This document shows positions 2,126 through 63,008 of a DNA stretch of 64,000 nt, piece by piece. Every line of letters starts with the position of its first letter. Within the stretch, counting starts at the first letter, position 1. Origin of the DNA: Neolewinella aurantiaca (lineage in GTDB: Bacteria; Bacteroidota; Bacteroidia; Chitinophagales; Saprospiraceae); assembly GCF_008014675.1 (NCBI RefSeq), contig NZ_VOXD01000011.1, positions 62,001 to 126,000 of the forward strand. Reading direction: 5' to 3'. Both the position numbers and the translations under genes were made by a program. The notes under the pieces were generated by a model that was given only the letters and a program-made list of their open reading frames with translations, was not told the origin of the DNA and searched no databases.

Positions 2126-2147
2126 GGGCGCCGGCGCGCAGGTGCAG
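2126..2147 (+). repeat. 22-bp dispersed repeat, single copy
   Basis: A copy of the family GGGCGC-Nx-CGCAGGTGCA, with two extra bases in the middle, in the 324-bp gap between the divergent dihydroorotase and barrel-protein genes. No other feature is evident in this gap apart from AT-rich DNA. Confidence 0.7.
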
Positions 2148-2330
2148 GGTGGGGTTGGAGAGAAGAGGTGCTCCGTTGGTAGATCTTAACCTCTCTTTAG
2201 TATATCAATCGCAAAATTTAAGATTTCAAAGTGCAACCTTCGTAAAGCGACAAACGCCCTTATAGTAAATTCAATCTCTGGAAAGGAACACGTAGTCTTT
2301 CCGGTTTATTCACCTTTCACTTACCTAAAC

Positions 2331-3017
2331 ATGATATCTATGAGACTCTTTACTTTACTCATCTGTGTATTCGCTTTTACGGCACTTTCCGCTCAATCGG
2401 TGAGTGTGGATGCCGATGGACCCGTCCTGGCGTACAAGACCGAGACCCAAACCACCAACATCAATGCATCTTATGCCTTAACCGGTCGCGAACGCACTCT
2501 ACTTGGTGACCTCGACCTGAGTGGTGCATGGGGTGGCCCTACTTACAATTACTCCGCTACCGGAGACGATTGGGCGCTGCTGCGTGGTGGCTTCGGTGGA
2601 TTGGAGTTCTCGGATGAACTCTTCATCGGCTACGGCGGCTGGAAAAGCCGCGAAGAGCACACCGTCGATAACCCGACGAGTCTCTCCCCGAAGTTCGACT
2701 ACAAGCACAGCGGCCTCATCATCGCCTACTCACCCTTTGCTTACAACGCTATTCATCCGCGAATCACTACTGTTTTCGGTCCCGGCCGGTTTGAGATTCT
2801 TGACGACTCGGTCCCCGGATTCACCGGCGAACGCGACGATCGCTTCCTCGCCGGTCAGGCCACAATTGGTCTGGAACTCAATCTTTTCCAGTGGTTCCGG
2901 TTGGGCATCGACGGTGGTTACCGCTTCGCTTCCGGCATCGATAATGAACTTGTTACGGCCGATGATGTTTCGGGTGCTATCATCCAGGCTGAAGCACGTT
3001 TTGGTTTCAGCTGGTAA
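2331..3017 (+). CDS. Secreted, probably outer-membrane beta-barrel protein
   Basis: A 228-residue protein of unknown function. Residues 1-21 form a signal peptide (short hydrophobic stretch ending LSAQ). The rest alternates hydrophobic and polar residues with many Gly, Tyr, Trp and Phe (for example GGFGGLEF, GYGGW, FRLGIDGGYRFASG) and ends in a terminal aromatic strand, AEARFGFSW. This pattern fits a small 8-10 strand outer-membrane barrel, but no named family is recognised. Two in-frame ATGs (2331 and 2340) are possible starts; both keep the signal peptide. It converges on the metalloprotease gene. Confidence 0.7.
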   Translation: MISMRLFTLLICVFAFTALSAQSVSVDADGPVLAYKTETQTTNINASYALTGRERTLLGDLDLSGAWGGPTYNYSATGDDWALLRGGFGGLEFSDELFIGYGGWKSREEHTVDNPTSLSPKFDYKHSGLIIAYSPFAYNAIHPRITTVFGPGRFEILDDSVPGFTGERDDRFLAGQATIGLELNLFQWFRLGIDGGYRFASGIDNELVTADDVSGAIIQAEARFGFSW

Positions 3018-3189
3018 CGAAGAATAGTAGAACCGGTACAATGGCTAACTCCTTGTTTTGCCGCTGGTTCTTCCCCAATTGAATGTGTGTGATTTACAAT
3101 GGTGGAAGTGGGGCAACAGCCTTGCTCCCGCCATTTTTAATTGCTATCCGTGTGAGGGCAGAAAGCCGGACATCAGTACCTGCCCTGGT

Positions 3190-3224
3190 AAAAAAGCCCC
3201 GCCGGACACATAGTCCGACGGGGC
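3190..3224 (-). terminator. Rho-independent terminator of the metalloprotease gene
   Basis: GCCCCG/CGGGGC stem extended by CGGA/TCCG with one mismatch. Read on the minus strand, the stem is followed by six T residues. It lies just after the minus-strand metalloprotease stop. Confidence 0.8.
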
Positions 3225-3260
3225 AGTTGAGTATAGGTACTAATGCAACACTTTATGCAA

Positions 3261-5723
3261 TTACCTCGCAACCGTGAATTTTGTGGTTGCGGAATATCCT
3301 GACGCTGCGTTTAAACGAACGAAGTACGTTCCTGCAGGGAAGTCATTCACGGGCAGCGCAACGCGCTGCTCTCCGGCCACAAGGCTTACCTCCATATTTC
3401 GTACAGTACGGCCAGTCATGTCGATTACCTGTACGGTGGCGACAGTGGCTTCCACCATCGCTAAGTTCAGATTCACAATGCTCGAAGCTGGGTTAGGGAA
3501 TACATCGAGAGATTCAGCAGCAGGAACCAGTGTTTCCTCCTGCGGGATAATCGGTTCGTTGCCGGGGATCAGCGCTACGCAGGCAGCTCCTTCGTAAATT
3601 CGGATGTTGCGGAAGTAAGAATTTCCGTTTCGGGGCGCACCATCGTGGTCACACACGAAGAAAATCCGGTCGAATGTACCCGTGTAGTACTGACCTACAG
3701 GGATCGAGTAAGCTTTCCAGTTCCCGATGGTATTATAATCTTTGAAGTCTCCGTAGCCCCAGGTTTGGGTTCCGAAAAGCTGGAAAGCATAATTGGAGCT
3801 GATGGTATTGTTGTTATCGAAACCAATGCCATGTATTTCTCCTTGCCGGGAAGAACCAAACTCAAATTCAAGTACGGTGTTTGGCGTAACGGTGTAGTCA
3901 ATCATTACGTCTTTCCAGGCGTTGTTCTGTATTGATATTCCCGTCGAGTTACTCAGGACGGTAACGTTACCCTTGTCCTGATTGCCTCCGTAGGTAGTGG
4001 GCACGTTGACCTGAAAATCAAGAGCGTCACAGGAGGTATCTCCTCCGCCACCACCGGAGCCTCCTCCGTCGTCGCTAGTGTTGGCACAGAATTGTTCTGT
4101 GGTTGAGGTGGTAAAATTGCCACCTGTAGCAACGTCCGTGCCGTTCAGGTTAATGGTATAGGCACCGTTTCCGTAAGAGCAGCAAATACCGTCGCCGTAA
4201 GTATCGGTAATGGTAAAGGTGTAGCAATCGTCTTCGAGGCAGAATTCCTCCGTATAGCTGGTGTTTCTTTGGCTGTAACCACCGCCTGATGCAACAGTGC
4301 TTCCGGCAGAATTAGTGAGCGTCCAGGCTGTTTCACCGGGGTAGTTGTCGGTGCGGATGGTAACCGTTACTTCGTTTTCGGTACAGTTCGTTCCGTTGTC
4401 GCCGCCGCCGTTATCGCCACCGCCACCGGTGCTGCAGCTGGTCAGGCAACTGCCGCTATAGGCCCGGTTACGGATAAGGTTGCCGGGCTGCGTACCGAAA
4501 CCGTTGTTGAGGTTCACTCCTGCACTCGTCAGGTGGCAATAGCTCATAATAGTACCGCCGCCGCTGGGCAGACCAACCGAACTGGAGCAACCTCCTTCGG
4601 TTGCGTAACAACCGTCGATGGCCGTGTTATTGTTGTTCCAAACACAGGCGTGGGTGTGTTGTGAACCAAAGTTGTGGCCAAGCTCATGGGCCAAAACGTT
4701 GACCGACCAGCTGTAGCTCGGAACGGCGTTGTAGTTGTTGTCGATAGAGCTAAAGCCGTACGCATAGCTCGGAGCACACAAAACATTGACGTAAGCCACA
4801 CCTCCACTCGCCTGAAACGACACAAGGTGAGCGATGTCTCCGTTGAAATTTGTACGGGTGGAGCGGAAAGCACTAAGGTTGTCGCTGCTGCTGTTGGCAT
4901 TGAAAGGATCCTGACTTGACCAGACGTACAGCTCACTGAGAACGAGGTTGATGTTTTCGTTGGCGTAGAGTACCGCAACCTGGTTGAACAGCCCGGTCAG
5001 GAAGCTCGTAACGTTGGCAACGCTGCCGCGTTGCTGGAAGATAGAATAATCGGCTTCCAGGTAAAGGTTGACGCAGTTGTTGGCGTCTTTCTGACTCGGA
5101 TCAAGGTCGATAAGGTCCTTGGGCGAATAAGGGATATTAGAGTCCGGAGTTTCACAGACGCCCAGGTCGGGAGCAGGCAGGTCATGATCGTTGTAAATGA
5201 CGTGACGAACTTCGTCTTTGCCAGACATCTTACCCAGTACGAAATTGCCCGCATTGGTAGCGATCATACCACTGAGCTCATCTTCGAAAATGGACACTGC
5301 AACCAGACTTGTTTTGTCATCAGACACAATGCCCCGGTAATGAAGTCCGAGCGGCGATTTATTGTAGCTGTTGCTTCCACTTTCGGTCACCCGAAAGCCG
5401 TCGGCGAAGATGTCGGCCCGCACAAGGTCCACTTTTCCGATACCGCCGGGAATGGTTAATTCCAGACGGTCAGGAGCGCTCTTGCGCAAGTCGTTCATTC
5501 CGGTTTCGGAAAGTTCGAAAACAGTATAGTCTGCACCCACCTCATCGAGGGCTTTAACGAACGAACTGCTCTTTGCGGAAGTGAATATGTCGAAAGTTTC
5601 CTCGCTGCTTTGGGTAGCTGTAGCCTGCTCAACGAGGGCAGAAGGACGAAGATTTTGGGCGGTTAGCCCGGTTGCCAGCAGGCTGGTGCAAAGCACTGCC
5701 AGACAGAAAGTAATAAAGCGCAT
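3261..5723 (-). CDS. Secreted M12-type zinc metalloprotease with T9SS sorting domain
   Basis: An 820-residue exported protease. Layout: signal peptide 1-22 (ATGLTAQ); propeptide-like region to about 210; reprolysin/adamalysin-like catalytic domain about 215-425 with the zinc motif HELGHNFGSQH (H346, E347, H350, H356); a Gly/Asp-rich linker at about 432-445; a disulphide-type domain containing GDGICC; a second Gly-rich linker; a lectin-like beta domain; and a C-terminal domain of about 75 residues beginning LDVFPNPAS and ending in KFTVAR, the T9SS type A sorting signal. Such proteins cross the outer membrane by the type IX system and are anchored or released. Peptide substrates cannot be predicted. 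Single gene with its own terminator. Confidence 0.88.
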   Translation of the reverse strand: MRFITFCLAVLCTSLLATGLTAQNLRPSALVEQATATQSSEETFDIFTSAKSSSFVKALDEVGADYTVFELSETGMNDLRKSAPDRLELTIPGGIGKVDLVRADIFADGFRVTESGSNSYNKSPLGLHYRGIVSDDKTSLVAVSIFEDELSGMIATNAGNFVLGKMSGKDEVRHVIYNDHDLPAPDLGVCETPDSNIPYSPKDLIDLDPSQKDANNCVNLYLEADYSIFQQRGSVANVTSFLTGLFNQVAVLYANENINLVLSELYVWSSQDPFNANSSSDNLSAFRSTRTNFNGDIAHLVSFQASGGVAYVNVLCAPSYAYGFSSIDNNYNAVPSYSWSVNVLAHELGHNFGSQHTHACVWNNNNTAIDGCYATEGGCSSSVGLPSGGGTIMSYCHLTSAGVNLNNGFGTQPGNLIRNRAYSGSCLTSCSTGGGGDNGGGDNGTNCTENEVTVTIRTDNYPGETAWTLTNSAGSTVASGGGYSQRNTSYTEEFCLEDDCYTFTITDTYGDGICCSYGNGAYTINLNGTDVATGGNFTTSTTEQFCANTSDDGGGSGGGGGDTSCDALDFQVNVPTTYGGNQDKGNVTVLSNSTGISIQNNAWKDVMIDYTVTPNTVLEFEFGSSRQGEIHGIGFDNNNTISSNYAFQLFGTQTWGYGDFKDYNTIGNWKAYSIPVGQYYTGTFDRIFFVCDHDGAPRNGNSYFRNIRIYEGAACVALIPGNEPIIPQEETLVPAAESLDVFPNPASSIVNLNLAMVEATVATVQVIDMTGRTVRNMEVSLVAGEQRVALPVNDFPAGTYFVRLNAASGYSATTKFTVAR

Positions 5724-6077
5724 GATAGCGATGTTGGTTTGAATAAATGATATGAAGTAGCGGATCTCGCCCGTTGGCGAAACCGTTATTTACAAGGAGT
5801 ATGCTATGCTGGGATTAAAAAATGGTCAGTTCACAAAATATCTGCACACGATCACGGTGAAGTGATGTGCAGAAACTAATAGGTCATTATTGTGCTGAAC
5901 GGAAAGGAATGTTACTACAGATAAAATGGCCCGTGCAAGGGCAATAAACAGTGGGTAAAGTCTGAAATATTTTCCTTTAAACGGCACTTTTGCGGGATTA
6001 GTTGTGCAAACAGTGAAAAAACATCTGTGGCCCCGGGGGCATGGGGTTGTAGATGTATTGTTACATGACTACAAGGG
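5724..6077. other. Intergenic region, no feature recognised
   Basis: 354 bp between two minus-strand T9SS cargo genes. It must carry the promoter of the metalloprotease gene, but no convincing -33/-7 pair, RNA gene or copy of the dispersed repeat was found. Confidence 0.5.
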
Positions 6078-8063
6078 TTAGTGGATTAGGATCCGCCGGA
6101 CGAAATTTTTGCTGCCATCCGTCAGCCGCAACAAATAAGTTCCGGAAGGGAGGTCTGAAACATTGATCGTAGCCGTATTACCAGCTACCTTGTATTCAGC
6201 AATTTTGCCTCTCGAGGCACCGTAAAGTTGTACCGTGCCGGTGGCGGACTGAAGGCTGGCCGGGAACGCAACTCTTACCTGATCGTCGGCCGGATTGGGG
6301 GAGACTATAAGTTGGTTGTCCTGTTCTTCTCCGGTTGCATTTGATTCAAGGGTGAAGATTATCCAGTCGATGTTGAACGCTGCTCCTCCGGTAATATTCA
6401 GGCGCATCACCTGCTGGCCGGCTTCCAGCATTACTGGGCCTTCGGCACTTATTTCCTGATAATCATTCCAGCCTGCCGTTACTGGCGTAACGAAATTTAC
6501 GGTTGCGTCAGCAGGGAAGTTCAGCGTAAAGGCACTGGCTGCGTCGTCGGAGGCGATCCGAGCGTCAACCCTGTAGTTTCCGGCAGTTTCCACATCGACG
6601 GTATATTCAATCCATTCTCCCGCCGAGACGTAACCGAGTACATAGCCATCATCCGGACCTCCTCCGATGTCGACTCCTTCCGAGAGGCGGTATCCGCCGC
6701 CCTGATTGGCGGAATCGTTATCGTTATAGGCAACGTCCTGACCGCCGTTGTCGTAATCCTCTACTTCTATTTTGCCGGGAATCGCCTGGGGGGTATTGTT
6801 GTAGGGCGACTGGACGTCTGAGGAAAGCGTTAACCGCTGCGGATACCCGTGCGTCAGGCGGCCAGTCGCATCGTGGGTGTACAGCCGGTAAGTGAAAACA
6901 CCGTTGCTGTAGACGTCGGTATCAAGAAAAGACATGGCCGAAGGGGCCAGTCTGCCCACTTCAGCAAAGGTTCCATTTACGCCCTCGGCACGTTCTACCA
7001 CTATGCTGTCGTTGTCTGTAAGTCGGTTGTTCCAGTCCAACATCACAACCGGGTTTCCCTGGTCATCCTGTGTCGAAGTAACGACGATCTCATTGGGCGA
7101 ATCCTGATAATAGTGAATGAGGACATCTTTTACTTCAGGCCAGGTCTGGTCGGATCTGTTCAACACCCTGAAGTCGCCACCATCGTCCCAGGTGGAGGTG
7201 GCGAAGCCGTGTAAGTCTGCGAGTCCGAGGTACTCGCCGTACCAACGCATACGTGAGTTGAAGTCGGCATTTACTTTTGCGCCGTATTCGCTGATGTGAA
7301 CCGGAATGCCATACTGATCGGACCAGTCTTTTGCTGCCTGGAATTTGTTGGCCATTCCTGCGTAATCCGCCGGTGTGCCCCAGGTGCCCTGAGAGAGGCC
7401 CGCAAAATTCCACGGATCGTAGGAATGGTAATACCCCATGATGTAATCATCGTCCGGAATTTCAGCTCTGAAAAGTTCTTCTGCGTTGGAGTACTGGTTG
7501 CCGCCAAAGATCACTATTCTGGTAGGTTCCTGTTCACGGATTATTCCGAGTATCCGGGCGTTCAGGTCATCGACCTGAGCTACGGTAAGACCAAACGGCT
7601 CATTGATGATTTCATAGAGTAACTTGTCCGGTTTGTCCTGAAAACGGACAACGATCTGCCGCCAGATGGAGTCGTACCTGGCTTTGTTTTCCGTCGTATA
7701 GTTCTGTTTCAGCCAGTCTTCGTGGTGGCCGTTAAGGGTAATGTACAGCCCCCGGTCCAGGCCCCAGTCAACAACTTCTTCTACCCGGTCCATCCAGTCG
7801 GCATCGATTGTATACGGAGGGGTGTTCATGGTGTGTTCGTCCCAGCGAACAGGAACCCGGACATTCGTGAATCCCGCTGCGACGTATGCGTCGAAGTAAG
7901 CTTCCTGGGCAGGGCCGTTGTTCCACGCGCTTTCCTGCGGCGGCTCCAGAGTGTTGCCGAGGTTGATGCCCCGCCCCATACCTTCCAGGGCTTCAAAGGG
8001 AGTCAGTTGCGCGGTAAGGGTGGTGGTCGTCAGAAGGACCAGAAGGAATTGCAATAACTTCAT
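6078..8063 (-). CDS. GH5 cellulase with CBM6-like module and T9SS sorting domain
   Basis: A 661-residue secreted glycoside hydrolase. Signal peptide 1-19; GH5 barrel about 20-325 with GRGINLGNTLEPP, the acid/base Glu155 in INEPFG and the nucleophile Glu259 in HISEYGA; a fibronectin-like region about 335-420; a CBM6-type module about 430-575 (IEVEDYDNGG, YVSAGEWIEYTVDV, FNIDWIIF); and a T9SS C-terminal domain (VSPNPADDQVRVAF to the terminal His). It probably cleaves beta-1,4 glucans such as cellulose or related polymers outside the cell. No susC/D or other carbohydrate gene adjoins it. A mobile miniature element sits only 29 bp upstream of the start codon and may have changed its promoter or leader. 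Confidence 0.9.
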   Translation of the reverse strand: MKLLQFLLVLLTTTTLTAQLTPFEALEGMGRGINLGNTLEPPQESAWNNGPAQEAYFDAYVAAGFTNVRVPVRWDEHTMNTPPYTIDADWMDRVEEVVDWGLDRGLYITLNGHHEDWLKQNYTTENKARYDSIWRQIVVRFQDKPDKLLYEIINEPFGLTVAQVDDLNARILGIIREQEPTRIVIFGGNQYSNAEELFRAEIPDDDYIMGYYHSYDPWNFAGLSQGTWGTPADYAGMANKFQAAKDWSDQYGIPVHISEYGAKVNADFNSRMRWYGEYLGLADLHGFATSTWDDGGDFRVLNRSDQTWPEVKDVLIHYYQDSPNEIVVTSTQDDQGNPVVMLDWNNRLTDNDSIVVERAEGVNGTFAEVGRLAPSAMSFLDTDVYSNGVFTYRLYTHDATGRLTHGYPQRLTLSSDVQSPYNNTPQAIPGKIEVEDYDNGGQDVAYNDNDSANQGGGYRLSEGVDIGGGPDDGYVLGYVSAGEWIEYTVDVETAGNYRVDARIASDDAASAFTLNFPADATVNFVTPVTAGWNDYQEISAEGPVMLEAGQQVMRLNITGGAAFNIDWIIFTLESNATGEEQDNQLIVSPNPADDQVRVAFPASLQSATGTVQLYGASRGKIAEYKVAGNTATINVSDLPSGTYLLRLTDGSKNFVRRILIH

Positions 8064-8092
8064 AATATGGTGATCGACTTTAAGATTATAAC

Positions 8093-8217
8093 TATACTAC
8101 TGGACATTTTTGATTTTCCACCTCACCCTCCGTCCTTTTCAGCAAGGTTTGCCTAAGGCTCAGCGGAGAGGGAACCAAACCTCGAAGAAGCCGCGAAGCG
8201 AAATGTCCAGTAGTGTG
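8093..8217 (+). mobile_element. Miniature inverted-repeat element (MITE), copy 1
   Basis: A 125-bp element with 17-base imperfect terminal inverted repeats (left TATACTACTGGACATTT; right end, reversed, CACACTACTGGACATTT). It is flanked by a perfect 9-bp direct repeat, GATTATAAC, at 8084-8092 and 8218-8226. A second copy of the same length at 52033-52157 differs at 9 positions and has a different 9-bp duplication. It has no coding capacity, so movement would need a transposase supplied elsewhere. Confidence 0.9.
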
Positions 8218-8335
8218 GATTATAACCCAATTAATTGATTTACCCGGAGAATTTCAAAGGTACATACACTATTTTAAGATGCGCCGTTGGTGCTATACGC
8301 TCTACCGGCAGGCTGATGCCTGCTGTCATTTTCCT

Positions 8336-8441
8336 GATTTGGGCGCAGACGCAGGTGCAGTAGACGGACAACAGCATGCTGCTCCGCAAGCGATACCGGT
8401 CTTCCAACAACCTTCTTTGCACCCGCGGCCGCGCCCAAATC
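8336..8441. repeat. Inverted pair of the 22-bp dispersed repeat
   Basis: Left arm GGGCGC-AGA-CGCAGGTGCA at 8341-8359 and right arm TTTGCACCCGC-GGCCGCGCCC at 8416-8436 face each other. The arms extend outward by five more complementary bases (GATTT and AAATC). The DNA between them is not shared with the other pairs. The pair lies in the divergent gap before the gene at 8479. Confidence 0.8.
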
Positions 8442-13886: not shown

Positions 13887-13971
13887 ATGTCCCTGACCGA
13901 GGGTACGCACAAAGCTTGGTCCGGTTCTTTCAGAACCGACCGGGAGTAGGAGAGTGCCCCGTAAACCTTAA

Positions 13972-13990
13972 TTGCACCTGCGGCCGCGCC
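13972..13990 (-). repeat. 22-bp dispersed repeat, single copy
   Basis: TTGCACCTGCGGCCGCGCC, reverse orientation of the family, between the tRNA terminator and the second ferredoxin gene. Confidence 0.8.
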
Positions 13991-14092
13991 TGCTGGTAAT
14001 GACGTATGGCGAAATATTGAAGCTTATTTCCGGGCATGCTAAACGCTTTACCTAACTGGCGGGTTAACTTTTCATGATCAGCAATAAGTGTT

Positions 14093-14466: not shown

Positions 14467-14558
14467 ATTGGTATTACGGCATTTTGACTGGCAGGCCTTT
14501 CACAACGGCCCGCCCAAATTGCTAACGAACCAAAGAAGCAACGAACTAAAATACCAAC

Positions 14559-16794: not shown

Positions 16795-16937
16795 GGGCGG
16801 CGGTGCGCAGGTGCAATGGAAGTTGAAGGGCATCGTTCGGTAACGAATAGCTGGGCATTCGATCACGGGCGGAGAAGCATTGATGCCTCCCGGAGCTACC
16901 AGTCCGTCTACCGTTCACTGCACCTGCGACCGCGCCC
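16795..16937. repeat. Inverted pair of the 22-bp dispersed repeat
   Basis: Left arm GGGCGGCGGTGCGCAGGTGCA at 16795-16815 (two bases longer than consensus) and right arm TGCACCTGCGACCGCGCCC at 16919-16937, in the 280-bp gap before the helicase gene. Confidence 0.78.
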
Positions 16938-19362: not shown

Positions 19363-19387
19363 TCCGGTTCGTCCTCCGGGCGTGCAA

Positions 19388-19406
19388 TGCACCTGCGTAT
19401 GCGCCC
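19388..19406 (-). repeat. 22-bp dispersed repeat, single copy
   Basis: TGCACCTGCGTATGCGCCC just after the helicase stop codon, reverse orientation of the family. Confidence 0.75.
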
Positions 19407-21294: not shown

Positions 21295-22062
21295 ATGGTA
21301 ACAGTTGATTTTACGAACAAGACTGCTCTGGTTACGGGCAGCAGCAAAGGGGTGGGCGCAGCTACTGCCCGTATTCTGGCCCAGGCTGGCGCACGTGTGT
21401 GCGTTCATTATAAGGGCGATGTCGCAGGTGCAAAGACTGTTCTGGCGTCGCTCCCCGGAGCAGGACACACCCTTTTACAGGCAGATTTATCGAAACCTAA
21501 AGAAGCAAAGCGATTGGTGGACAGCGCCGCCATGAAAATGGGACGGTTAGATATTCTGGTGAACAACGCCGGCATCTTTCGGCCCCATCCCGTCGATGGG
21601 AGCATGGGCTTTGAGCAGTGGCTCGATACTTTCCACGAAACCATCCATACCAATCTCATCGGTCCCGCGGCAGCGGCTTTCGCCGCTATTCAGATCATGC
21701 GTAAGCAGGGCGTCGGTACGATTGTGAACGTGGGTAGCCGCGGTGCATTCCGCGGCGAGGCCGGCCAGGTAGGGTATGGGGCCGCAAAGGCCGGCCTGCA
21801 TTCCCTTTCTCAATCACTGGCTCAGGCCGTGGGCAAAGACAACATCACGGTTCATGCCGTAGCGCCGGGATTCATCGAAACGGCGATGGCCCGTCCTCAC
21901 CTACAGGGCGAAGCCGGAGAAGCAGTAAAGGCGCAAAGCCCTCTCAATCGGGTCGCTACGGTCGATGAAGTAGCACGCGCCATCCTTTACCTTGCCAGCC
22001 CCGAAGCACGTTTTACCACCGGTGCTGTGCTTGATATCAACGGAGCCAGTTATTTGAGGTAG
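21295..22062 (+). CDS. Short-chain dehydrogenase/reductase (FabG-like)
   Basis: A 255-residue classical SDR. NAD(P) motif TGSSKGVG (14-21), NNAG (90-93), catalytic Ser148, Tyr161 and Lys165 (YGAAK). The C-terminal part AILYLASPEARFTTGAVLDINGASYLR is typical of SDRs. The residue after beta-2 and the KG motif suggest NADPH preference, but this is inference. It could act in fatty-acid or secondary carbonyl reduction; no pathway neighbour helps. It precedes the maltokinase gene by 116 bp. Confidence 0.85.
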   Translation: MVTVDFTNKTALVTGSSKGVGAATARILAQAGARVCVHYKGDVAGAKTVLASLPGAGHTLLQADLSKPKEAKRLVDSAAMKMGRLDILVNNAGIFRPHPVDGSMGFEQWLDTFHETIHTNLIGPAAAAFAAIQIMRKQGVGTIVNVGSRGAFRGEAGQVGYGAAKAGLHSLSQSLAQAVGKDNITVHAVAPGFIETAMARPHLQGEAGEAVKAQSPLNRVATVDEVARAILYLASPEARFTTGAVLDINGASYLR

Positions 22063-23746: not shown

Positions 23747-26227
23747 TTACAACATCACCCCAACCGTAACGTAGAAGGTTCTTGGCGCACTGGGAATGAT
23801 CCCGGGGCCCGGATAACCGGTCGCGCGCCGGGTGAAGTAAGCCTCGTCCAGCAGATTACTTACGCCGCCTTCGAAACTGAACTTACGCCACCGGTAGCTC
23901 AAAGAGAGGTCCATCACACCATAGGCTGGAATCTCTCCAACAATGCCCGATTGATTGTCGTCCTGATCCTGTGGTGCATTGGAAGCATCGGTATACTGCT
24001 CCGATAAATAAGCGTACTGTAACGAGCCCAGTAGGTTGCCGTAGCCGAAGCGAAGCCCGGTCTTAAGGTTAAGTACCGGTATAAACTCAACCTCATTGCC
24101 CGCTACACCGGCAATATCGGAGGAGAGGTACTCGGAGCGGGTCAGGCTGGTGTTAGCGAAGAACGTTAGGGTGTAAGGGGTGCCGTCCTCATTTTTGGTG
24201 TTGAGCAGGTTGTAATCAATCAGTGTTTCGAGACCATAGATGAAAGCGTCTCCGATATTACTCCGCAGACGAATGATGCGTCCGGTAGGTTGCTCTGTAC
24301 CGGTTGCATCGATCTGGACTTCAGGGGTGAGCACTTCGCCGAGGCGACCGTTGTAGCGCAGGCCAAAGACGTTAGCCGTGTACGAAAAGCGGGAAATGCT
24401 GCCTCTGATTCCGGCATCTGCTGTGAAGCCACTCTCGTCCCGGATGTTCGGGTCTACCTGAAAACTGGGGTTTACGGTACGAATGTCGTTGAAGGTAACC
24501 GAGCGGTAATTCTGACTCACATTGGCGAAAAACTCCAACCGTTCCGAAGGGAGGTAACTAAGACCCAGGCCCAGAAGGACTTTATTGCGGGCAAAGTCGC
24601 GGTCGTCGGTAAACTCAGTGTCCCGGATTGGGTTGCCCGCCAGATCAAAGTCAATACGGCGGAATGAGCCCTCTGATTGAGTGTTGATGTATTCGTACCG
24701 GGCACCGGGCGTAATGCTTAGTTTGTCGGTCAGGTATAAAATATGCTCTCCGAAGAGCGCAACATTACGGTTCGGGAAAGTGAAGGCAGATTGATTGGGA
24801 TATTCCGGAAATTCATTTGTCGCCAGCATGAAGTCAGCATCAGATCCGTTGGTACCCGGTCCCTGTAAAGCACTGTTGTCGGCCTGGTAATACTTGGCTC
24901 CCAGGAGGAATACTGCGGACCGCTTGCCCAGTTTGTAGCGGTGAAGAATTCTCGCTTCTGCCCCCCAGTTGTTGAACTCACCAACGATGAGGTCGCGGGG
25001 TGCGGAGAGGTCGTCTATCTGAGAAACACGGTTCGTCCGAAAGCCTACAGCTCTGCGGGCCGCATCGAGCGCGAAAGCGCTGATCGAAAGATTTGTCCGG
25101 TCGTTCAGTTTGTGGTCCCAGCGTAGGTTGTAGAGTTCCCAGTCTACCTCAAACCAGTTGCGGGTGCGGTTGCTTTGCAACGGATCTGCGTAGAATTGGG
25201 CGTCGGTGAGCCCCCCGGCTTGCTGAGCGAGGTAATCGAGGTAGGTGTACTCAAAACTTATTTTGCTGTTCTCGGCAAGCTCGTAGTCGAGATGCAGATA
25301 GGCGTTGCGGCTGTCGAAACCTGAATTGGGCCGGAAGCCATCTCCCCGCTTGTAGTTGAAGTATCCGTAGTAACCGAGTTTTCCGACCGTGCCACTAAGG
25401 GAGTTGAAGCTGGTAAAAAGCCCGTTGGAGCCAATTGTTTGTCGGCTGATGAGTTCGATCTTTTTGCGGGGATTCGGCTTGCGAAACACGAAGTTGACCA
25501 GCCCGCCAAACTGCGTGCCATACTGCAAACTGGCCGCTCCCCGGATTACCTGAACCTCGCTTAATGCTTCGGCAGGCGGGGTATAGTAGCTTTCGGGGTA
25601 GCCGAGTACATCGGCACTAATGTCGTAGCCGTTCTGACGGGTATTAAAGCTGGCCGACCGGTTGGGGTCGAGGCCCCGGCCTCCGATGCTGAGCTGCAGG
25701 CCGGCATCGTCTGATTCATAAATGTTGAGCCCGGATACCTCGGCGTAAATCTGGCGCGCCTGGTTACTCGCCAGGTTGACCGTGAGTGCATCCAGGCGAA
25801 CAACCTCCGTTTTCTTCCCGGCGTAGATGGCCGTCCCCTCCACCGCACGGAGCCGCGAAAGGGAAGCTTTTTTCTTTCCTTCAGCAAGTACCGTTACGGC
25901 ATCGAGGTCGAGTTGAAGCGGTACTAGCCGGATGGTAACCGCTTGAACCGGCTGACTAAAGTCAATGCTTTCCTGACGACTACTGAAACCTGTACCGAGG
26001 ATGGTGAGGGTGAGTACGGGAGACTGGCTACTGATCGTTGCAATGCCTTTACGGTCGGTCGTGTACACTTGCCCGGTTTCTTCGGCAAAAATTTCGACTG
26101 CCGGCAGAGGCTGATTGTCTTCCTGATTCTGAATGGTGAGCGTAAGCGTATTCTGGGCGCAGACGCAGGTGCAAAGAAAGGTCAGGAGCAGGGTTAGGAG
26201 CACCGGAAATCGTTGCGGCGACAGCAT
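23747..26227 (-). CDS. TonB-dependent outer-membrane receptor with carboxypeptidase-like N-domain
   Basis: An 826-residue receptor. Signal peptide about 1-25 (LLTFLCTCVCAQ), then a CarboxypepD_reg-like domain (EDNQPLPAVEIFAEETGQVYTTDRKGIATI), a plug domain (SIGGRGLDPNRSASFNTRQNGYDISADVLGYPESYYTPPAEALSEVQVIRGAASLQYG) and a 22-strand barrel ending in the terminal aromatic TFYVTVGVML. The plug resembles FecA-like siderophore receptors. The end of the signal peptide (CTCVCAQ) is encoded by a copy of the dispersed repeat. The ATG at 26227 is preferred because it begins the signal peptide; a longer in-frame ATG exists 189 bp upstream. Last gene of the DUF4856-imelysin-HTTM unit. Confidence 0.85.
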   Translation of the reverse strand: MLSPQRFPVLLTLLLTFLCTCVCAQNTLTLTIQNQEDNQPLPAVEIFAEETGQVYTTDRKGIATISSQSPVLTLTILGTGFSSRQESIDFSQPVQAVTIRLVPLQLDLDAVTVLAEGKKKASLSRLRAVEGTAIYAGKKTEVVRLDALTVNLASNQARQIYAEVSGLNIYESDDAGLQLSIGGRGLDPNRSASFNTRQNGYDISADVLGYPESYYTPPAEALSEVQVIRGAASLQYGTQFGGLVNFVFRKPNPRKKIELISRQTIGSNGLFTSFNSLSGTVGKLGYYGYFNYKRGDGFRPNSGFDSRNAYLHLDYELAENSKISFEYTYLDYLAQQAGGLTDAQFYADPLQSNRTRNWFEVDWELYNLRWDHKLNDRTNLSISAFALDAARRAVGFRTNRVSQIDDLSAPRDLIVGEFNNWGAEARILHRYKLGKRSAVFLLGAKYYQADNSALQGPGTNGSDADFMLATNEFPEYPNQSAFTFPNRNVALFGEHILYLTDKLSITPGARYEYINTQSEGSFRRIDFDLAGNPIRDTEFTDDRDFARNKVLLGLGLSYLPSERLEFFANVSQNYRSVTFNDIRTVNPSFQVDPNIRDESGFTADAGIRGSISRFSYTANVFGLRYNGRLGEVLTPEVQIDATGTEQPTGRIIRLRSNIGDAFIYGLETLIDYNLLNTKNEDGTPYTLTFFANTSLTRSEYLSSDIAGVAGNEVEFIPVLNLKTGLRFGYGNLLGSLQYAYLSEQYTDASNAPQDQDDNQSGIVGEIPAYGVMDLSLSYRWRKFSFEGGVSNLLDEAYFTRRATGYPGPGIIPSAPRTFYVTVGVML
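26155..26176 (+). repeat. 22-bp dispersed repeat inside the receptor signal-peptide codons
   Basis: GGGCGC-AGA-CGCAGGTGCAAAG, a full consensus copy, inside the coding region of the TonB receptor. Read on the minus strand it gives LCTCVCAQ, exactly the h-region end and cleavage site. Confidence 0.85.
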
Positions 26228-26390: not shown

Positions 26391-27734
26391 CTACAATCCA
26401 TAAATAGTATCTTCAAAAGGCATCAGCCATTGTGTACGGGGCGTATCCTCGGTTATTGCCGACAGGTTGATATCGGGGTTCACATAAACCTGGCTGCCGC
26501 GTCCGTTCAGGGCTACGTAGCTCTCTGCGTAAACGGCAGGCAAAGGTCCGTCTTTTTCCTGATGCAGCGAAGCTAAATGATGAGCGAATTCAAGGATAAA
26601 GTCCGGTTGTGTCGCAAGTTGCTTGTTCTGGAAGGTGGTCAGGTAGTCGGCGGGGTTAACAATTTTACGTTTGCCCGTAGCTGGGTCTACTACTTTATAA
26701 GTAAGGTAGCCCGCTTTTTCCATCAGCATTACCCGCCAGCTGAAGCGGTAACCTTCTTCGGTCCAAAAGAGTTCTCCGGGATGAAGGAGATAACGCCACG
26801 GAAGCAGAAGATGGAGCACCAACACCACCCCGACAATTACCTTGCTCCAATCAACCCACTTTGCATCCAGCGGCCGCGCCTCCGAAACCTTGCTGTGGGC
26901 TTTACTCTCCGGCCACATGGCCGTCAGCCATTCTAGAATTCGGAGGTGGACCTTGGCGGGGAAGAATATCAGTGCGCTGACGATCATGATGTACGGGAAC
27001 ATTCCGATGGGAAAGAGCACACGGGTAAGCACGTGAAAAATGATTACGGCGACAAATGCAAGCGGACGGGTAGGGCGCCAAAGGAGGAAAAAGACAATGA
27101 AGAGATCGTACGCTGCGCCAGCCCACGAAAATGCATAGTGGACCCAAACCTGTTGCATCAGATCGCCCAGCAGCGGAATGTCGTACTTGGCCGGCAACCA
27201 GATCGACAACGGCTGGGCGTCGATCAGCCAGTCTGAATTCAGCTTGGCAAGCCCGGCGTAGAAGTACACGACCCCGACAAAGACTTTGAGGCAGTCTATC
27301 GTCCAGGAGGGGACAGTTGCGGCCTTATTCACTCCTTTATCTGCCGAGTAACAATTCGCAGCCGGGAGCCAAATCAGGACAAAACTGAGCAGCGTAATGA
27401 AGTAGTAATGGTTTAAATAGGTGGTTTTATCCATCAGCTCTATGTACGTGAAGCTGAGGAAAAAGAGTACGATAGCGATGCGGTATTTCCACCCGATCAT
27501 TACCATTATTGCCGAAACAAAAGCTATGACAAAGAGCAGATATGTCCAGTTGCCAGGGGGCTTGACCCATTCGAAGTAGCGGTAGCTAAAGAAATAATCA
27601 GGTTCGAGGTAGAGCTTCTCGATCCATCCATTCCACCAAAAGCGAATAAGGCTAAGGGCCATCATGAACCCAAAGCCTATTCGGAATACGGCAAGCGGTG
27701 CTGCCGAAGTCGACGAAGCGTAATTTGAAGCCAC
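26391..27734 (-). CDS. HTTM-domain (vitamin K carboxylase-like) membrane protein
   Basis: A 447-residue polytopic membrane protein. About seven hydrophobic helices between residues 10 and 330 include the HTTM core (LAVFRIGFGFMMALSLIRFWW, TTYLNHYYFITLLSFVLIWLP, FYAGLAKLNSDWL, VLTRVLFPIGMFPYIM). The C-terminal about 110 residues are soluble. HTTM proteins are distant relatives of vitamin K-dependent gamma-glutamyl carboxylase; whether this one carboxylates anything is not known. A copy of the dispersed repeat encodes EARPLDAK in a loop near residue 290. The start is GTG. It sits between imelysin and the TonB receptor. Confidence 0.82.
   Translation of the reverse strand: MASNYASSTSAAPLAVFRIGFGFMMALSLIRFWWNGWIEKLYLEPDYFFSYRYFEWVKPPGNWTYLLFVIAFVSAIMVMIGWKYRIAIVLFFLSFTYIELMDKTTYLNHYYFITLLSFVLIWLPAANCYSADKGVNKAATVPSWTIDCLKVFVGVVYFYAGLAKLNSDWLIDAQPLSIWLPAKYDIPLLGDLMQQVWVHYAFSWAGAAYDLFIVFFLLWRPTRPLAFVAVIIFHVLTRVLFPIGMFPYIMIVSALIFFPAKVHLRILEWLTAMWPESKAHSKVSEARPLDAKWVDWSKVIVGVVLVLHLLLPWRYLLHPGELFWTEEGYRFSWRVMLMEKAGYLTYKVVDPATGKRKIVNPADYLTTFQNKQLATQPDFILEFAHHLASLHQEKDGPLPAVYAESYVALNGRGSQVYVNPDINLSAITEDTPRTQWLMPFEDTIYGL
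26860..26880 (-). repeat. 22-bp dispersed repeat inside the HTTM coding region
   Basis: TTTGCATCCAGCGGCCGCGCC differs at two or so positions from the copy TTTGCATCCTGCGTCCGCGCC at 55850. It encodes a hydrophilic loop between membrane helices, where an insertion would be tolerated. Confidence 0.65.
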
Positions 27735-30204: not shown

Positions 30205-30256
30205 AGCGGAAGCCTTAAGATGGGGTTGTTTTTATCTGTACTAAATCTTAATAGCG

Positions 30257-31755: not shown

Positions 31756-31797
31756 GTGGGGGTGTCGTTATTTGGATTACATCCAGACAAGCTGTTT

Positions 31798-31817
31798 GCG
31801 CGACCGCAGGTGCAAAG
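31798..31817 (+). repeat. 22-bp dispersed repeat, single copy
   Basis: GCGCGACCGCAGGTGCAAAG in the divergent gap between DUF4856 paralog 2 and the acyl-CoA dehydrogenase gene. Confidence 0.8.
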
Positions 31818-37581: not shown

Positions 37582-37604
37582 GGGCGCGGACGCAGGATGC
37601 AAAG
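37582..37604 (+). repeat. 22-bp dispersed repeat, single copy
   Basis: GGGCGCGGACGCAGGATGCAAAG, with one extra A in the GGTGCA core, in the gap after the esterase gene. Confidence 0.8.
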
Positions 37605-42799: not shown

Positions 42800-42834
42800 G
42801 TAGAGGGAGGTGCCGGCTCCTCAAAAAGCAGGTC

Positions 42835-42853
42835 TGCACCTGCGACCGCGCCC
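42835..42853 (-). repeat. 22-bp dispersed repeat, single copy
   Basis: TGCACCTGCGACCGCGCCC, in the 389-bp gap between susD and the arsenite exporter. The remainder of this gap holds the operon terminator and an AT-rich dyad ATTGTAATATTGCAAT (42946-42961) that might be an operator. Confidence 0.8.
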
Positions 42854-52019: not shown

Positions 52020-52032
52020 ACAACAATAGTAG

Positions 52033-52157: not shown

Positions 52158-52186
52158 CAATAGTAGGCCAGGTTGATAGATCATAC

Positions 52187-52269
52187 GGCGCGTACGCAGG
52201 TGCAAGGAAGGGAATAATCAGACCGTTCCCCAGGCCTGAAATTCCGCGCTTTGCACCTGCGTGCTCGCC
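52187..52269. repeat. Inverted pair of the 22-bp dispersed repeat
   Basis: GGCGCGTACGCAGGTGCAA at 52187-52205 and TTTGCACCTGCGTGCTCGCC at 52250-52269, facing each other, 30 bp downstream of the MITE. Confidence 0.8.
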
Positions 52270-52419
52270 TCGTCATTAGCCGAAAGGTGCCCATCGCTGT
52301 CGTCCCGTCTTAACAAATCTTAATTCTTCTTAACCCGACCGTAAGCAACCGGAAGGGAGAAAAAGCCGTGTTTAGCAGTAAGAAAGGTGATCATGCATCA
52401 CCTGATTAATTATCTAGTT

Positions 52420-55768: not shown

Positions 55769-55870
55769 GGGGCGAAAACGCGGGTGCAAGGTAAGAACGT
55801 AGGAGCAAAGGTTCGCATAGCGGCTGATTCATGCCCCAAAAACCAATTCTTTGCATCCTGCGTCCGCGCC
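55769..55870. repeat. Inverted pair of the 22-bp dispersed repeat
   Basis: GGGGCGAAAACGCGGGTGCAAG at 55769-55790 and TTTGCATCCTGCGTCCGCGCC at 55850-55870, between the divergent RibF-fusion and Mrp genes. Confidence 0.75.
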
Positions 55871-58874: not shown

Positions 58875-59040
58875 GGGCGCTAATCGCAGGTGCAGGGTAC
58901 GGTTTAACGGCAAGATCTCCTGGTGTTTTGGTCGGGAACCTGATTGAACGAAAAGGGCGGGGGAGAATCTGCCCCGCAGCACAACCCGCCGTTACTTCAG
59001 TCTGTGCCGGGCAACATACTTTGCACCTGCCGGCCGCGCC
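58875..59040. repeat. Inverted pair of the 22-bp dispersed repeat
   Basis: GGGCGCTAATCGCAGGTGCA at 58875-58894 and TTTGCACCTGCCGGCCGCGCC at 59020-59040, facing each other, with 125 bp between. Confidence 0.8.
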
Positions 59041-60302: not shown

Positions 60303-60500
60303 TTTTTTTGCTTAAAGTAAAGGCAACAGGAATATCCCGATCTGCCGCAATTGTATGTATTGCTTAGGTCCGTTTCTTGTAGCGTGGGGCCCTGTCCCTA
60401 CGTTTTCGTTGTGCATCTTGTTACACACGAGTTCAAACCTCTATTTTTCTACATTGGTTCATTTTAACGATATTACCCGGAATAGCTCAGGCTCCTTATC

Positions 60501-61652
60501 ATGACACAACTCACAAATCAACGATTTCTTTTCCCCGAAAAAGCGGTTTCCGGCTACCTGAACGGTGCCAGCCGGTCTCCTCAGTTGAAAGCACTTGCCG
60601 CCGCGGCAAGACACGCCATCTGGTGGCGCGAGGAAAACGCCGGAATGCCAATCCCTGCCTTCTTCGAGACGGTAAGTCTGGTGAAAGCGGAATTTGCCCA
60701 ACTGATCAATTGCGCCGAGCCCGATCGCATTGCGGTGCTGCCGTCCACCAGCTACGGTATCGCTACGGCTGCCAAAAACCTGCCCCTGCAACAGGGGCAG
60801 AACATCATCGTCGCCGAAGATCAGTTCCCCAGTAACTACTATTCCTGGTTGGAGCGCTGCAAGGAAGTGGGCGCCGAACTTCGGGTCGTTGCCCGGCCCG
60901 AGCCGGGCGCAACGGATAGTTGGTCTGACCGTGTGCTTGCGGCCATCGATCACAAAACAGCCGCCGTAGCCATCGCTCAGGTGCACTGGGCGGATGGCAG
61001 CTTGTTTGACCTAGCGGCGATCCGCGACCGCACGAACGATGTCGACGCCTGGCTCATCATCGACGCAACGCAATCGGTCGGAGCCTTTCCCACCGATGTC
61101 TCCGCCCTTAAACCCGACGTGCTCTGCGCCGGCGGTTACAAATGGCTGATGGGCCCCTACGGTTGTGGCTACGCCTACTTCGGCGAGCGGATGGACGGCG
61201 GCACTCCGCTGGAGGAAAACTGGATCAACCGCGCCGGGAGCGAGGACTTTCGTAACCTCGTCAATTACCGCGAAGAATACCGGCCACTGGCCGGTCGCTA
61301 CTGCGTGGGGCAACAATCTAACTTCATCATGATGCCTATGCAGCTCGAAGGCCTGAAGCAGGTCAACGCGTGGGGAGCGGAAAACATTCAGGCGTACTGC
61401 AACGAGTTGTGGAGTGGAGTAGCGCCAATACTAGCGAACGTAGGCATTGAACTGCCGGAGGAGCGGGCACATCACCTCGTCGGGCTAAAGCTCACCGACG
61501 ATTTCGATCGGGATGTATTGTCCGCTGAATTCGAACGACGCGGACTTTCACTCAGCTACCGGGGCGACGCCATCAGGGTTTCTCCGGGTTGTTATAACCT
61601 ACCCGAAGAGCTCGCCGAACTTGCCGGAGCGTTCTTCAAGGCAGTCAAATAA
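60501..61652 (+). CDS. Class V aminotransferase-fold PLP enzyme
   Basis: A 383-residue PLP protein of the cysteine desulfurase/isopenicillin epimerase-like fold. Schiff-base Lys214 in GGYKWLMGPYG, Asp188 in IDATQSVGA, and substrate-binding SYGIATAAKN. The DQFPSNYYSW and QVHWADGSLFDL stretches match class V sequences that are not true cysteine desulfurases. The reaction is unknown; selenocysteine lyase or kynureninase-like activities are possible. It is divergent from the antiporter gene and converges on the TPR gene. Confidence 0.85.
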   Translation: MTQLTNQRFLFPEKAVSGYLNGASRSPQLKALAAAARHAIWWREENAGMPIPAFFETVSLVKAEFAQLINCAEPDRIAVLPSTSYGIATAAKNLPLQQGQNIIVAEDQFPSNYYSWLERCKEVGAELRVVARPEPGATDSWSDRVLAAIDHKTAAVAIAQVHWADGSLFDLAAIRDRTNDVDAWLIIDATQSVGAFPTDVSALKPDVLCAGGYKWLMGPYGCGYAYFGERMDGGTPLEENWINRAGSEDFRNLVNYREEYRPLAGRYCVGQQSNFIMMPMQLEGLKQVNAWGAENIQAYCNELWSGVAPILANVGIELPEERAHHLVGLKLTDDFDRDVLSAEFERRGLSLSYRGDAIRVSPGCYNLPEELAELAGAFFKAVK

Positions 61653-61700
61653 ACCGTAATCCTTGCTTCTGGTGGCTAAAATAGTCTGAAGCCAAAGGGC

Positions 61701-62954
61701 TTACTCTCCGAACGTCCGGCCGTGCTCCCGGGCCATCATTCCGTTGATGATGAACTGGTAGGCAAGCAAGCCGAAAAGCGCCAGATTGATGAGCAGCGAT
61801 GAACCGGCAGGGATCCCAATCAGCGCAAAGCCCACCAAAGCGGCTGTATATATGGTCAGGAGGAGCCGTGGTTGTTTGCGTTTCGGCCGCAAGAAGCTGC
61901 CCAGCGGGATGGTCAGCATCACGAACGCTGCGGCGAACAGCTGAAAGGTGGAGAAACCAGTCGCGAGCCAGGCGATGCCCGATAGCAGGGCAAGCCCCAG
62001 CGATCCACCAACAAGGCTCGCCATGAGTTTATCGTCTTTGTCGAGCAACAGCCGGCCGTACTTATTGGTCAGCAGGTAAAAGTTCATCAGCGGGTCAATG
62101 ATCCAGGTCAGCAGAAAAAGGAAGACCATGATGTAAACCAGCGGCATGATGTACGGAGCGTACTCGGGGTTGGAGACTGCCTGGCGGTTGAGGAAGTTCA
62201 CTCCGAACCACAGGCCGATCATGATGCCAAAACTCGCTCCGCCGGAGAGTTTCGACATGGCCTCCTGGTACTTGAAGTACATCCGATAGGGCCAGAACCT
62301 TGCCTTCAGCGCTTCCAGCATGGCGAAGCGGGCGAGTTGGTCGGTAGGGTTCAGGCTGAGGGCGTACTTGAGGCGCTCCAGCGCTTCGTCTACCTTGCCG
62401 TTCCGCAGGAGCTGGTATCCGTGGTTGGCGATGGTCGAACTGTCTTCGGGGTTGATGTGCAGCGCCTCCGAGATGGTGTCGTCGGTATCGGTTTTCCCAA
62501 GAAAACCACCGATGTAAATCTTCATGTTAAGCGCCTCGGTGTTCTGAGGGTTTACGGCGAGTGCTTCGTCAACGTAGTGGAGTGCCGCATCGTAATTGCG
62601 CTGGTCCAGCTTGGCTTTTGCCATCAGGGTATAAGCATCGTCGTCTTCGGCGTCCATTTCCATCAGCTGGCCGGCAAACTGCTCGGCAATCTTCGGTTTG
62701 CCGTCGTTCAGTTCAATAATAGCGGCCAGGCGGAGCACCATCGGGTTGTCGGGGTGCTCACTTAGTAGCGGACCGACCAGTTCCCGGGCGCGCTCCTTTT
62801 CCCCCATGTTAGAGAGTGTGTTTACGTAGTACAACTGCGCGATGGGCTCGTCCGGATGGTCAGCCAGGTAGGTCTCCAGCAGCGTCTTGCTCTCCGGCCA
62901 GCGGGCCTGGGACTGGAGGAGGTGGAGGCGTTCGATCAGGGCGTTTAGTTGCAT
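61701..62954 (-). CDS. TPR protein with C-terminal membrane segments
   Basis: A 417-residue protein. Residues 1-220 are TPR units (PIAQLYYVNTLSNMGEKERARELVGPLLSEHPDNPMVLRLAAIIELNDGKPKIAEQFAGQLMEMDAEDDDAYTLMAKAKLDQRNYDAALHYVDEALAVNPQNTEAL). Residues about 235-400 hold four to five membrane helices (GASFGIMIGLWFGVNFL, YIMPLVYIMVFLFLLTWI, LLSGIAWLATGF, LLTIYTAALVGFALIGIP). It is probably a membrane scaffold, and is followed in the same direction by the AAA+ gene upstream of it, so the two could form one transcript. No known name. Confidence 0.78.
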   Translation of the reverse strand: MQLNALIERLHLLQSQARWPESKTLLETYLADHPDEPIAQLYYVNTLSNMGEKERARELVGPLLSEHPDNPMVLRLAAIIELNDGKPKIAEQFAGQLMEMDAEDDDAYTLMAKAKLDQRNYDAALHYVDEALAVNPQNTEALNMKIYIGGFLGKTDTDDTISEALHINPEDSSTIANHGYQLLRNGKVDEALERLKYALSLNPTDQLARFAMLEALKARFWPYRMYFKYQEAMSKLSGGASFGIMIGLWFGVNFLNRQAVSNPEYAPYIMPLVYIMVFLFLLTWIIDPLMNFYLLTNKYGRLLLDKDDKLMASLVGGSLGLALLSGIAWLATGFSTFQLFAAAFVMLTIPLGSFLRPKRKQPRLLLTIYTAALVGFALIGIPAGSSLLINLALFGLLAYQFIINGMMAREHGRTFGE

Positions 62955-62986
62955 GGAGGAGAGTAAAAGGGGAACGAGGGAGGTAA

Positions 62987-63008
62987 GGGGCGGGGCCGCA
63001 GGTGCAGG
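62987..63008 (+). repeat. 22-bp dispersed repeat, single copy
   Basis: GGGGCGGGGCCGCAGGTGCAGG, a slightly degraded copy between the TPR gene and the AAA+ gene. Confidence 0.7.

What the first reader, a model, noticed from the sequence alone, without database searches (positions are those of the whole stretch)
2126..63008. About 19 copies of a short dispersed repeat (core CGCAGGTGCA) across 64 kb
Seen directly: copies of GGGCGC-N3-CGCAGGTGCAAAG at 2126, 8341, 8416(rev), 13972(rev), 16795, 16919(rev), 19388(rev), 26155, 26860(rev), 31798, 37582, 42835(rev), 52187, 52250(rev), 55769, 55850(rev), 58875, 59020(rev), 62987. Nearly all are intergenic. Density (one per about 3.4 kb) and both strands suggest an expanding extragenic repeat, like REP/BIME sequences, but not a known family to me.
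Basis: partly seen in the sequence, partly recalled or inferred. Interest (0 to 1): 0.82.

Follow-up and report, generated by a model that had tools for sequence, protein, structure and literature searches.

The report
Species-specific self-DNA tag in Neolewinella
A short DNA word is written well over a thousand times across this marine bacterium's genome, changes between species like a dialect, turns up in some phages too, and almost never recurs close by in the same orientation, which looks like a tag for recognising own DNA during gene exchange.

Summary
The repeat is real and far above chance: all 19 listed places hold it, and the genome has 1643 copies (<=2 mismatches) against 26 for the reversed control. 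The host belongs to Neolewinella. A REP-type mobile repeat is not supported. It is an asymmetric motif, T-rich-GGGCGCggmCGCAGG(A)TGCAArG plus a loose tail. In an aminotransferase gene it is present in 10 of 21 genomes of the genus and replaced without gaps in the other 11, so there it evolved by point mutation. The two congeners poorest in it carry own related high-copy 'dialects': 682 copies in G011, 439 in G001. Phage contigs carry it too. New rule: same-orientation copies almost never lie within 1.5 kb (0 seen, about 44 expected at <=1 mismatch; 4 against 60 at <=2), while opposite orientations do; it repeats with the G011 dialect. Best explanation: a DNA-uptake-sequence-like self tag, spread by biased DNA exchange, acting strand by strand. 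Uptake is untested, and no type IV pilus ATPase was found in the genus, so it would differ from known DUS/USS systems. New variant of a known kind.

The parts
2126..2149 (+). motif copy
8341..8362 (+). motif copy, inward pair with 8415-8436
8415..8436 (-). motif copy, inward pair with 8341-8362
13970..13991 (-). motif copy
16795..16818 (+). motif copy with longer spacer, pair with 16916-16937
16916..16937 (-). motif copy
19385..19406 (-). motif copy
21414..21435 (+). motif copy inside a gene (predicted gene 21295-22062); the G005 locus L113 has a near-identical site
26155..26176 (+). motif copy, in the signal peptide codons of the predicted gene 23747-26203 (-)
26862..26880 (-). motif variant CGCTGGATGCA inside predicted gene 26391-27665
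31796..31817 (+). motif copy
37582..37604 (+). motif variant CGCAGGATGCA
42832..42853 (-). motif copy
52186..52207 (+). motif copy, inward pair with 52249-52270
52249..52270 (-). motif copy
55770..55791 (+). motif copy, inward pair with 55852-55870
55852..55870 (-). motif variant CGCAGGATGCA
58875..58897 (+). motif copy, inward pair with 59019-59040
59019..59040 (-). motif copy (one mismatch in the core)
62988..63009 (+). motif copy

Best explanation
The repeat is a species-specific DNA tag that works like the DNA uptake sequences (DUS/USS) of Neisseriaceae and Pasteurellaceae. DNA carrying the local dialect is preferentially taken up or recombined by cells of the same species, so alleles with the tag spread (molecular drive) and the genome fills with copies wherever the sequence is tolerated: intergenic DNA, signal peptides, linkers, protein ends. 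SHOWN: high copy number, dialects, evolution by point mutation in place (one clean locus), presence in phage contigs, and a strand-specific spacing rule. INFERRED: that horizontal DNA exchange is the driver. INFERRED, more weakly: that each single strand is judged on its own, because a second copy on the same strand within about 1.5-2 kb seems to bring no advantage whereas one on the other strand does. That would put recognition on single strands (during import or RecA loading) and the effective piece length near 2 kb.
For: 1643 copies, balanced strands, reversed control 26. Copy numbers (<=1 mismatch) in 20 congeners run from 4 to 1491, and are 0-7 in 39 genomes of other genera. The two poorest congeners carry own dialects of similar layout: G011 T-rich-GGCTnnCAAAGTAGCAAnG, 682 copies, at most 1 in any of the other 60 genomes searched, G000 included; G001 GGCGRCGGRGCGCAGGTAR, 439 copies, 33 in its sister G007, 0-2 in the other 19 of the genus. 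Aminotransferase: 24 of the 30 fetched orthologues aligned, no gap within 14 codons of the site; motif with <=2 mismatches in 10 of 21 genomes of the genus (6 exact), other codons in 11. PssA loop: the motif in several species and the G011 dialect core at the same loop in G011. Same-orientation exclusion: 0 pairs under 1.5 kb (about 44 expected) in 804 kb of G000 at <=1 mismatch, 4 against 60 at <=2; 0 against 18 expected in 525 kb of G011 with its own dialect; 0 direct against 21 opposite pairs under 1 kb in the 80 named loci at <=1 mismatch, 1 against 26 at <=2. Ordinary short direct repeats show no such deficit. Phage contigs: 36 sites in 147 kb, with tape measure, terminase, portal and tail proteins in the three stretches checked; Pasteurellaceae phages likewise accumulate host USS (PMC6776037, passages). 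ComEC in all 21 genomes of the genus. Strands balanced in each of five contigs sampled. Neisseria benchmarks: about 34-42% of DUS in genes, DUS spacing matches conversion-tract length (PMC2397512, section 7).
Against: I found no uptake or transformation data for the genus. No type IV pilus ATPase (PilB/PilT type) was seen in any of 21 genomes of the genus, whereas Neisseria and Haemophilus take DNA up through such pili (introduction of PMC7965970, passages). ComEC is equally present in relatives without the motif (56 of 60 relatives in all). Uptake in Haemophilus is reported as independent of USS orientation (PMC1939737, passages), so the orientation-specific spacing is not what a textbook DUS predicts. 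Phage carriage would also fit a Chi-like or other self mark. Only two coding loci were compared in depth, and the PssA loop varies in length. Same-orientation exclusion is less clean in the small G005 set: 6 direct pairs under 3 kb against about 18 expected, 3 of them under 1.5 kb.
Confidence: 0.58

Rival explanations
1. A Chi-like polar recombination or nuclease-attenuation signal: an exonuclease-helicase that enters broken DNA stops degrading and loads RecA when it passes the motif in one orientation.
For: Orientation-specific by nature; a second same-orientation copy nearby would be redundant; phages would gain by carrying it; species-specific sequences are usual for Chi (recalled).
Against: Known Chi sites are 5-8 nt (recalled); this motif has about 15 strongly conserved positions. 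Strands balanced in each of five contigs sampled, so no sign of replication orientation. Strong intergenic enrichment.
Confidence: 0.16
2. Binding sites of a chromosome-organising or nucleoid protein spaced by selection.
For: High copy, both strands, near one per 3-4 kb.
Against: A double-strand binding protein has no obvious reason to tolerate a neighbour in opposite but not the same orientation at 100-1500 bp. Dialect replacement of hundreds of sites between congeners. Presence in phage contigs.
Confidence: 0.1
3. REP/RAYT-like or MITE-like mobile repeat. Copies spread by a transposase acting on single strands; same-strand neighbours are deleted by it.
For: Inward pairs under 250 bp enriched in G000: 17 against 3.7 expected. 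Y1_Tnp genes present, 4 in G000; 8 of 20 such genes examined have a motif copy within 600 bp. A possible 3-bp hairpin. A single-strand transposase could delete DNA between same-strand copies.
Against: Ungapped coding orthologues. Interiors of pairs differ in length (44 to 228 nt) and, by eye, in sequence, and some include gene starts and ends (homology of interiors was not tested formally). No fixed flanking of 20 Y1_Tnp genes. G018 has 1001 copies and no Y1_Tnp hit, though its assembly is fragmented.
Confidence: 0.06
4. A transcription or RNA element (terminator, leader or antitermination site), one per transcript strand.
For: Preferentially intergenic; 56 of 82 intergenic copies in the first sample have the gene on the GGCGC side reading away from the copy.
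Against: 22 of 42 genic copies are sense and 20 antisense; a coding copy deep inside a gene is conserved across species; no Rfam match at the motif.
Confidence: 0.05

Closest known systems
DNA uptake sequences (DUS) of Neisseriaceae
   Same: Hundreds to thousands of copies, more in intergenic DNA than in genes, dialects among related species (PMC3630211, abstract and passages), mean spacing of about 1.1-1.5 kb (PMC2397512, section 7)
   Different: Longer motif (about 15 strongly conserved positions plus T-rich flank and tail); no type IV pilus ATPase found in the host; same-orientation exclusion; different phylum; uptake function unproven
Uptake signal sequences (USS) of Pasteurellaceae
   Same: Core plus loosely conserved flank (recalled); two dialects, and phages of the hosts accumulate them (PMC6776037, passages)
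   Different: USS action reported independent of orientation (PMC1939737, passages); sequences unrelated (recalled)
Chi sites
   Same: Orientation-specific recombination signal, species-specific, carried by phages (recalled)
   Different: Chi is 5-8 nt and often oriented with replication (recalled); neither was seen here
REP/BIME sequences with RAYT transposases
   Same: Extragenic, high-copy, inward pairs
   Different: No obvious REP-type palindrome, no fixed RAYT flanks, point-mutational origin in coding DNA

Membership tests
DNA uptake sequence (DUS/USS) | Strong genomic over-representation of one short word | tested here: met
   1643 copies against 26 in control
DNA uptake sequence (DUS/USS) | Both strands, no replication-strand bias | tested here: met
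   825/818; balanced in each of five contigs sampled; no whole-chromosome test
DNA uptake sequence (DUS/USS) | Related dialects in related species | tested here: met
   three dialects in one genus
DNA uptake sequence (DUS/USS) | Evolves in place by mutation or conversion, not insertion | tested here: met
   aminotransferase, 24 rows without gaps near the site; only one clean locus
DNA uptake sequence (DUS/USS) | Accumulates in phages of the host | tested here: met
   36 sites in 16 stretches, each fetched by an exact match, so biased upward; phage genes in the 3 stretches checked. The hosts of these phages are inferred
DNA uptake sequence (DUS/USS) | Acts independently of orientation | tested here: not met
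   indirect: same-orientation exclusion only; this concerns spacing, not uptake itself
DNA uptake sequence (DUS/USS) | Type IV pilus machinery for uptake | tested here: not met
   only partial T2SSE matches (at most 84 of 370 positions, E 1e-5 or weaker, some just over the Pfam cut-off) in 20 of 21 genomes of the genus, none in the 55%-complete G010
DNA uptake sequence (DUS/USS) | Promotes DNA uptake or transformation | not testable with these tools
   needs a bench assay
REP/RAYT | RAYT gene flanked by the repeat | tested here: not met
   20 Y1_Tnp loci in six genomes: 10 sites within 600 bp of the domain, at 8 of 20 loci, both sides at one only
REP/RAYT | Palindromic hairpin | tested here: inconclusive
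   3-bp stem GCG(CNNN)CGC: 9 of 10 variant copies compensatory in G000, 8 of those 10 in coding DNA; not reproduced in G005 or the pooled species, 2 of 4 variants in G019
REP/RAYT | Copies move by insertion | tested here: not met
   ungapped orthologues at one locus
Chi | 5-8 nt, replication-oriented (recalled definition) | tested here: not met

The most novel reading that the evidence does not exclude
A self-DNA tag read on single strands: in Neolewinella each strand of a DNA piece of roughly 2 kb is admitted or used only if that strand carries the dialect, a sequence-specific DNA exchange system without type IV pili in a phylum where my searches found no such tag reported, with phages carrying the password.
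Probability: 0.3. Interest if true: 0.92.

Novelty: new variant of a known kind. Interest (0 to 1): 0.8.

Why it matters
Uptake sequences are described from two families in the papers seen here (for example PMC7811141, summary passage). A third, independent case in Bacteroidota, with dialects inside one genus and no pilus ATPase found, would let one ask what reads such tags, how dialects change over hundreds of sites, and whether they isolate species. The same-strand exclusion rule is a new quantitative clue to mechanism: it suggests that the unit judged is one strand of about 2 kb, and it can be tested at once on Neisseria and Haemophilus genomes.

Tried and rejected
(1) Promoter reading (TTTGCACC): conserved positions do not include the Bacteroidota -7 TA, a consensus that I recall. 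(2) Signal-peptide coding as the origin: 7 of 42 genic copies in 404 kb encode ...CTCVRAQ-type signal peptides in one frame, but most copies are intergenic or in other frames, so these are tolerated copies. (3) Transposon-like units with inward ends: interiors vary in length and, by eye, in sequence, and some include gene termini. (4) RAYT link. At the 16 loci outside G001, 10 sites lie within 600 bp of the domain, where I estimate about 6 from one site per 3.2 kb: a mild excess, not a fixed arrangement. (5) Polar, replication-oriented sites: an all-plus listing for two contigs of G019 was an artefact of the list; a fetched stretch of C1 holds an exact minus-strand copy that the list lacks. 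(6) Purge of direct repeats in general: direct repeats of 11-16 nt within 1.5 kb are more, not less, frequent than inverted ones. (7) Hairpin: suggestive in G000 only, so I do not build on it. (8) Mutual information inside the motif: no long-range pair stands out except positions 3 and 8. The bipA tree mixed strands and was not used; one search was. The expected pair numbers assume uniform density; clustering in intergenic DNA would raise them at short range. Direct pairs also fluctuate further out (17 against 28 at 4-5 kb, 42 against 28 at 5-6 kb).
Full report
Observation. The motif is in the window as described. All 19 listed places hold it. Three are a variant with one added A, and one further copy at 21414 lies in a gene. 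In the whole genome G000 (5,995,659 bases, 104 contigs; the window is C8:62001-126000) 1643 places match with at most two mismatches, 825 and 818 on the two strands; the reversed pattern gives 26.

Anatomy. A profile of 133 copies from 404 kb shows an asymmetric element: a weak T-rich flank, then GGGCGC-ggm-CGCAGGTGCA, ArG, a looser GKTT and a purine-rich GGAGC at variable distance. Copies were chosen by similarity to the core, which inflates its conservation. In the window the repeat finder lined copies up over 24 to 44 nt only. A near-fixed core with a loose tail suggests a recognised site, not copies of a decaying element.

Where it lies. By my own gene% of 804 kb is coding, yet 134 of 219 copies (at most one mismatch) are intergenic. 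The 42 genic copies in the 404 kb sample sit in signal peptides (7), linkers, C-termini and elsewhere, 22 sense and 20 antisense.

Who has it. In 20 congeners the count (at most one mismatch) runs from 4 to 1491; in 39 genomes of other genera it is 0 to 7. By matching contig lengths, G005 is N. persica, G002 N. agarilytica, G006 N. lacunae.

Dialects. The two poorest congeners are not without a tag. In 100 kb of G011 the most over-represented 10-letter word is CAAAGTAGCA. Its profile from 157 copies is T-rich-GGCTnnCAAAGTAGCAAtG, and GGCTNNCAAAGTAGCAANG occurs 682 times in G011 and at most once in any of the other 60 genomes searched with it. G001 has GGCGRCGGRGCGCAGGTAR 439 times, its sister species G007 33 times, the other 19 genomes of the genus 0 to 2 times. 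A two-protein tree puts G001 with G007 inside a nine-species clade with 4 to 447 copies of the G000 form; the place of G011 is unsure. In 100 kb each of G004 and G017, and 83 kb of G021 (another genus), no clear tag stood out. So the tag seems to have been rewritten at hundreds of places within one genus.

Point mutation, not insertion. In an aminotransferase gene the G000 copy spans codons for GAVAGAK. Of 30 orthologues fetched I aligned 24; none has a gap within 14 codons of the site. Ten of 21 genomes of the genus hold the motif with at most two mismatches, six exactly; eleven, and three outgroups, use other codons, mostly for similar residues. In a PssA loop (23 of 30 fetched orthologues aligned) G000, G003 and G002 hold the motif exactly, several others hold forms with one or two mismatches, and G011 has its own dialect core in the same loop; that loop varies in length, so it is weaker evidence. 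In a first comparison over all held sequence 13 local alignments at genic sites were ungapped and 11 gapped, many of the gapped ones in signal peptides or a C-terminal tail. The clean locus contradicts insertion of a mobile repeat there.

A strand-specific spacing rule. In 804 kb of G000 neighbouring copies (at most two mismatches) alternate in orientation: 60 direct, 95 outward, 94 inward of 249 (a few span unsampled gaps), p about 1e-16 against random orientation. Same-orientation pairs closer than 1.5 kb: none, about 44 expected at this density (at most one mismatch), and 4 against about 60 with two mismatches allowed; 4 against 14.6 at 1.5-2 kb; 31 against 28.7 at 3-4 kb. Opposite-orientation pairs are not excluded, and inward pairs under 250 bp are in excess, 17 against 3.7. 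With the G011 dialect in 525 kb: 0 against 18 under 1.5 kb with the strict pattern, 5 against about 35 with the loose one, and inward and outward pairs are alike. In 80 named loci: 0 direct and 21 opposite under 1 kb, or 1 and 26 with two mismatches. In smaller sets direct pairs under 3 kb are depleted but not absent: G005 6 against about 18, G019 1 against about 9, six pooled species 1 against about 8. Ordinary short direct repeats are not depleted, so this is not general deletion between repeats. The rule concerns one strand at a time.

Phages. A scan of IMG/VR found 16 stretches in 15 contigs with an exact long match; 12 of 16 hold two to four copies, 36 copies in 147 kb, 12 of them outside my open reading frames. 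Each was fetched by an exact match and several are relatives of one another, so the density is biased upward. Ten proteins of three stretches were scanned: tape measure, terminase and portal, tail and maturation protease families appear. Pasteurellaceae phages likewise accumulate the uptake sequences of their hosts (PMC6776037, passages read).

Mechanism. The set (many copies, dialects, in-place evolution, intergenic preference, phage carriage, spacing near conversion-tract size) is what biased uptake with recombination is held to produce in Neisseria and Haemophilus (PMC2397512 section 7; PMC1939737 and PMC7811141 passages). I commit to a DNA-uptake-like self tag at 0.58. The step from 'looks driven' to 'uptake' is inferred. 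The strand-specific rule is not described in those passages, and Haemophilus uptake is reported as independent of orientation. The simplest reading is that each strand is judged separately, so a second tag on the same strand adds nothing, while one on the other strand does. A Chi-like polar signal is the main rival.

Machinery. ComEC is in all 21 genomes of the genus but in 56 of 60 relatives overall. PilB/PilT-type ATPases were not found: only partial matches of at most 84 of 370 model positions in the genus, while three relatives show full-length ones. Natural competence is reported for Riemerella, another Bacteroidota genus, and R. columbina is said to prefer its own DNA (PMC7965970, passages).

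Possible hairpin. In G000 the positions flanking the variable triplet covary (G-C 128, T-A 6, C-G 3, C-A 1), but 8 of the 10 variants lie in coding DNA and other genomes do not clearly repeat it. I treat it as a lead.

Novelty. A full-text search for Lewinella with uptake sequence gave no paper. One for uptake sequences with Bacteroidota or flavobacteria matched 1,711 papers on any two terms; of the 15 shown only the Riemerella study concerns the subject. The library lacks most subscription journals, so this is not proof of absence.

Noticed in passing
window 8082-8222 and 52022-52162: Two copies of a 141-nt repeat, 89% identical, each close upstream of an inward pair of the motif.
   Followed up: no
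window 29014-30204 and 30423-31658: Tandem paralogous genes on the minus strand, 71-83% DNA identity in blocks, with near-identical 41-nt boxes upstream (30224-30264, 31691-31731).
   Followed up: no
window 3261-8063: Two adjacent secreted enzymes, an M12-type metalloprotease and a GH5 cellulase with CBM6, both with type IX secretion sorting tails.
   Followed up: no
L067 (G005) about 10026-10430 and 14344-14690: Long arrays built of CCCTGCAACaagagcgaagcga units, unrelated to the motif.
   Followed up: no
L056 (G001) about 3717-5520: Tandem array of about 93-bp units with GGAGCTCCAGCTCCAGG.
   Followed up: no
L375-L390 (IMG/VR): Phage contigs sharing near-identical motif surroundings in different samples, apparently related phages of Neolewinella-like hosts.
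   Followed up: partly
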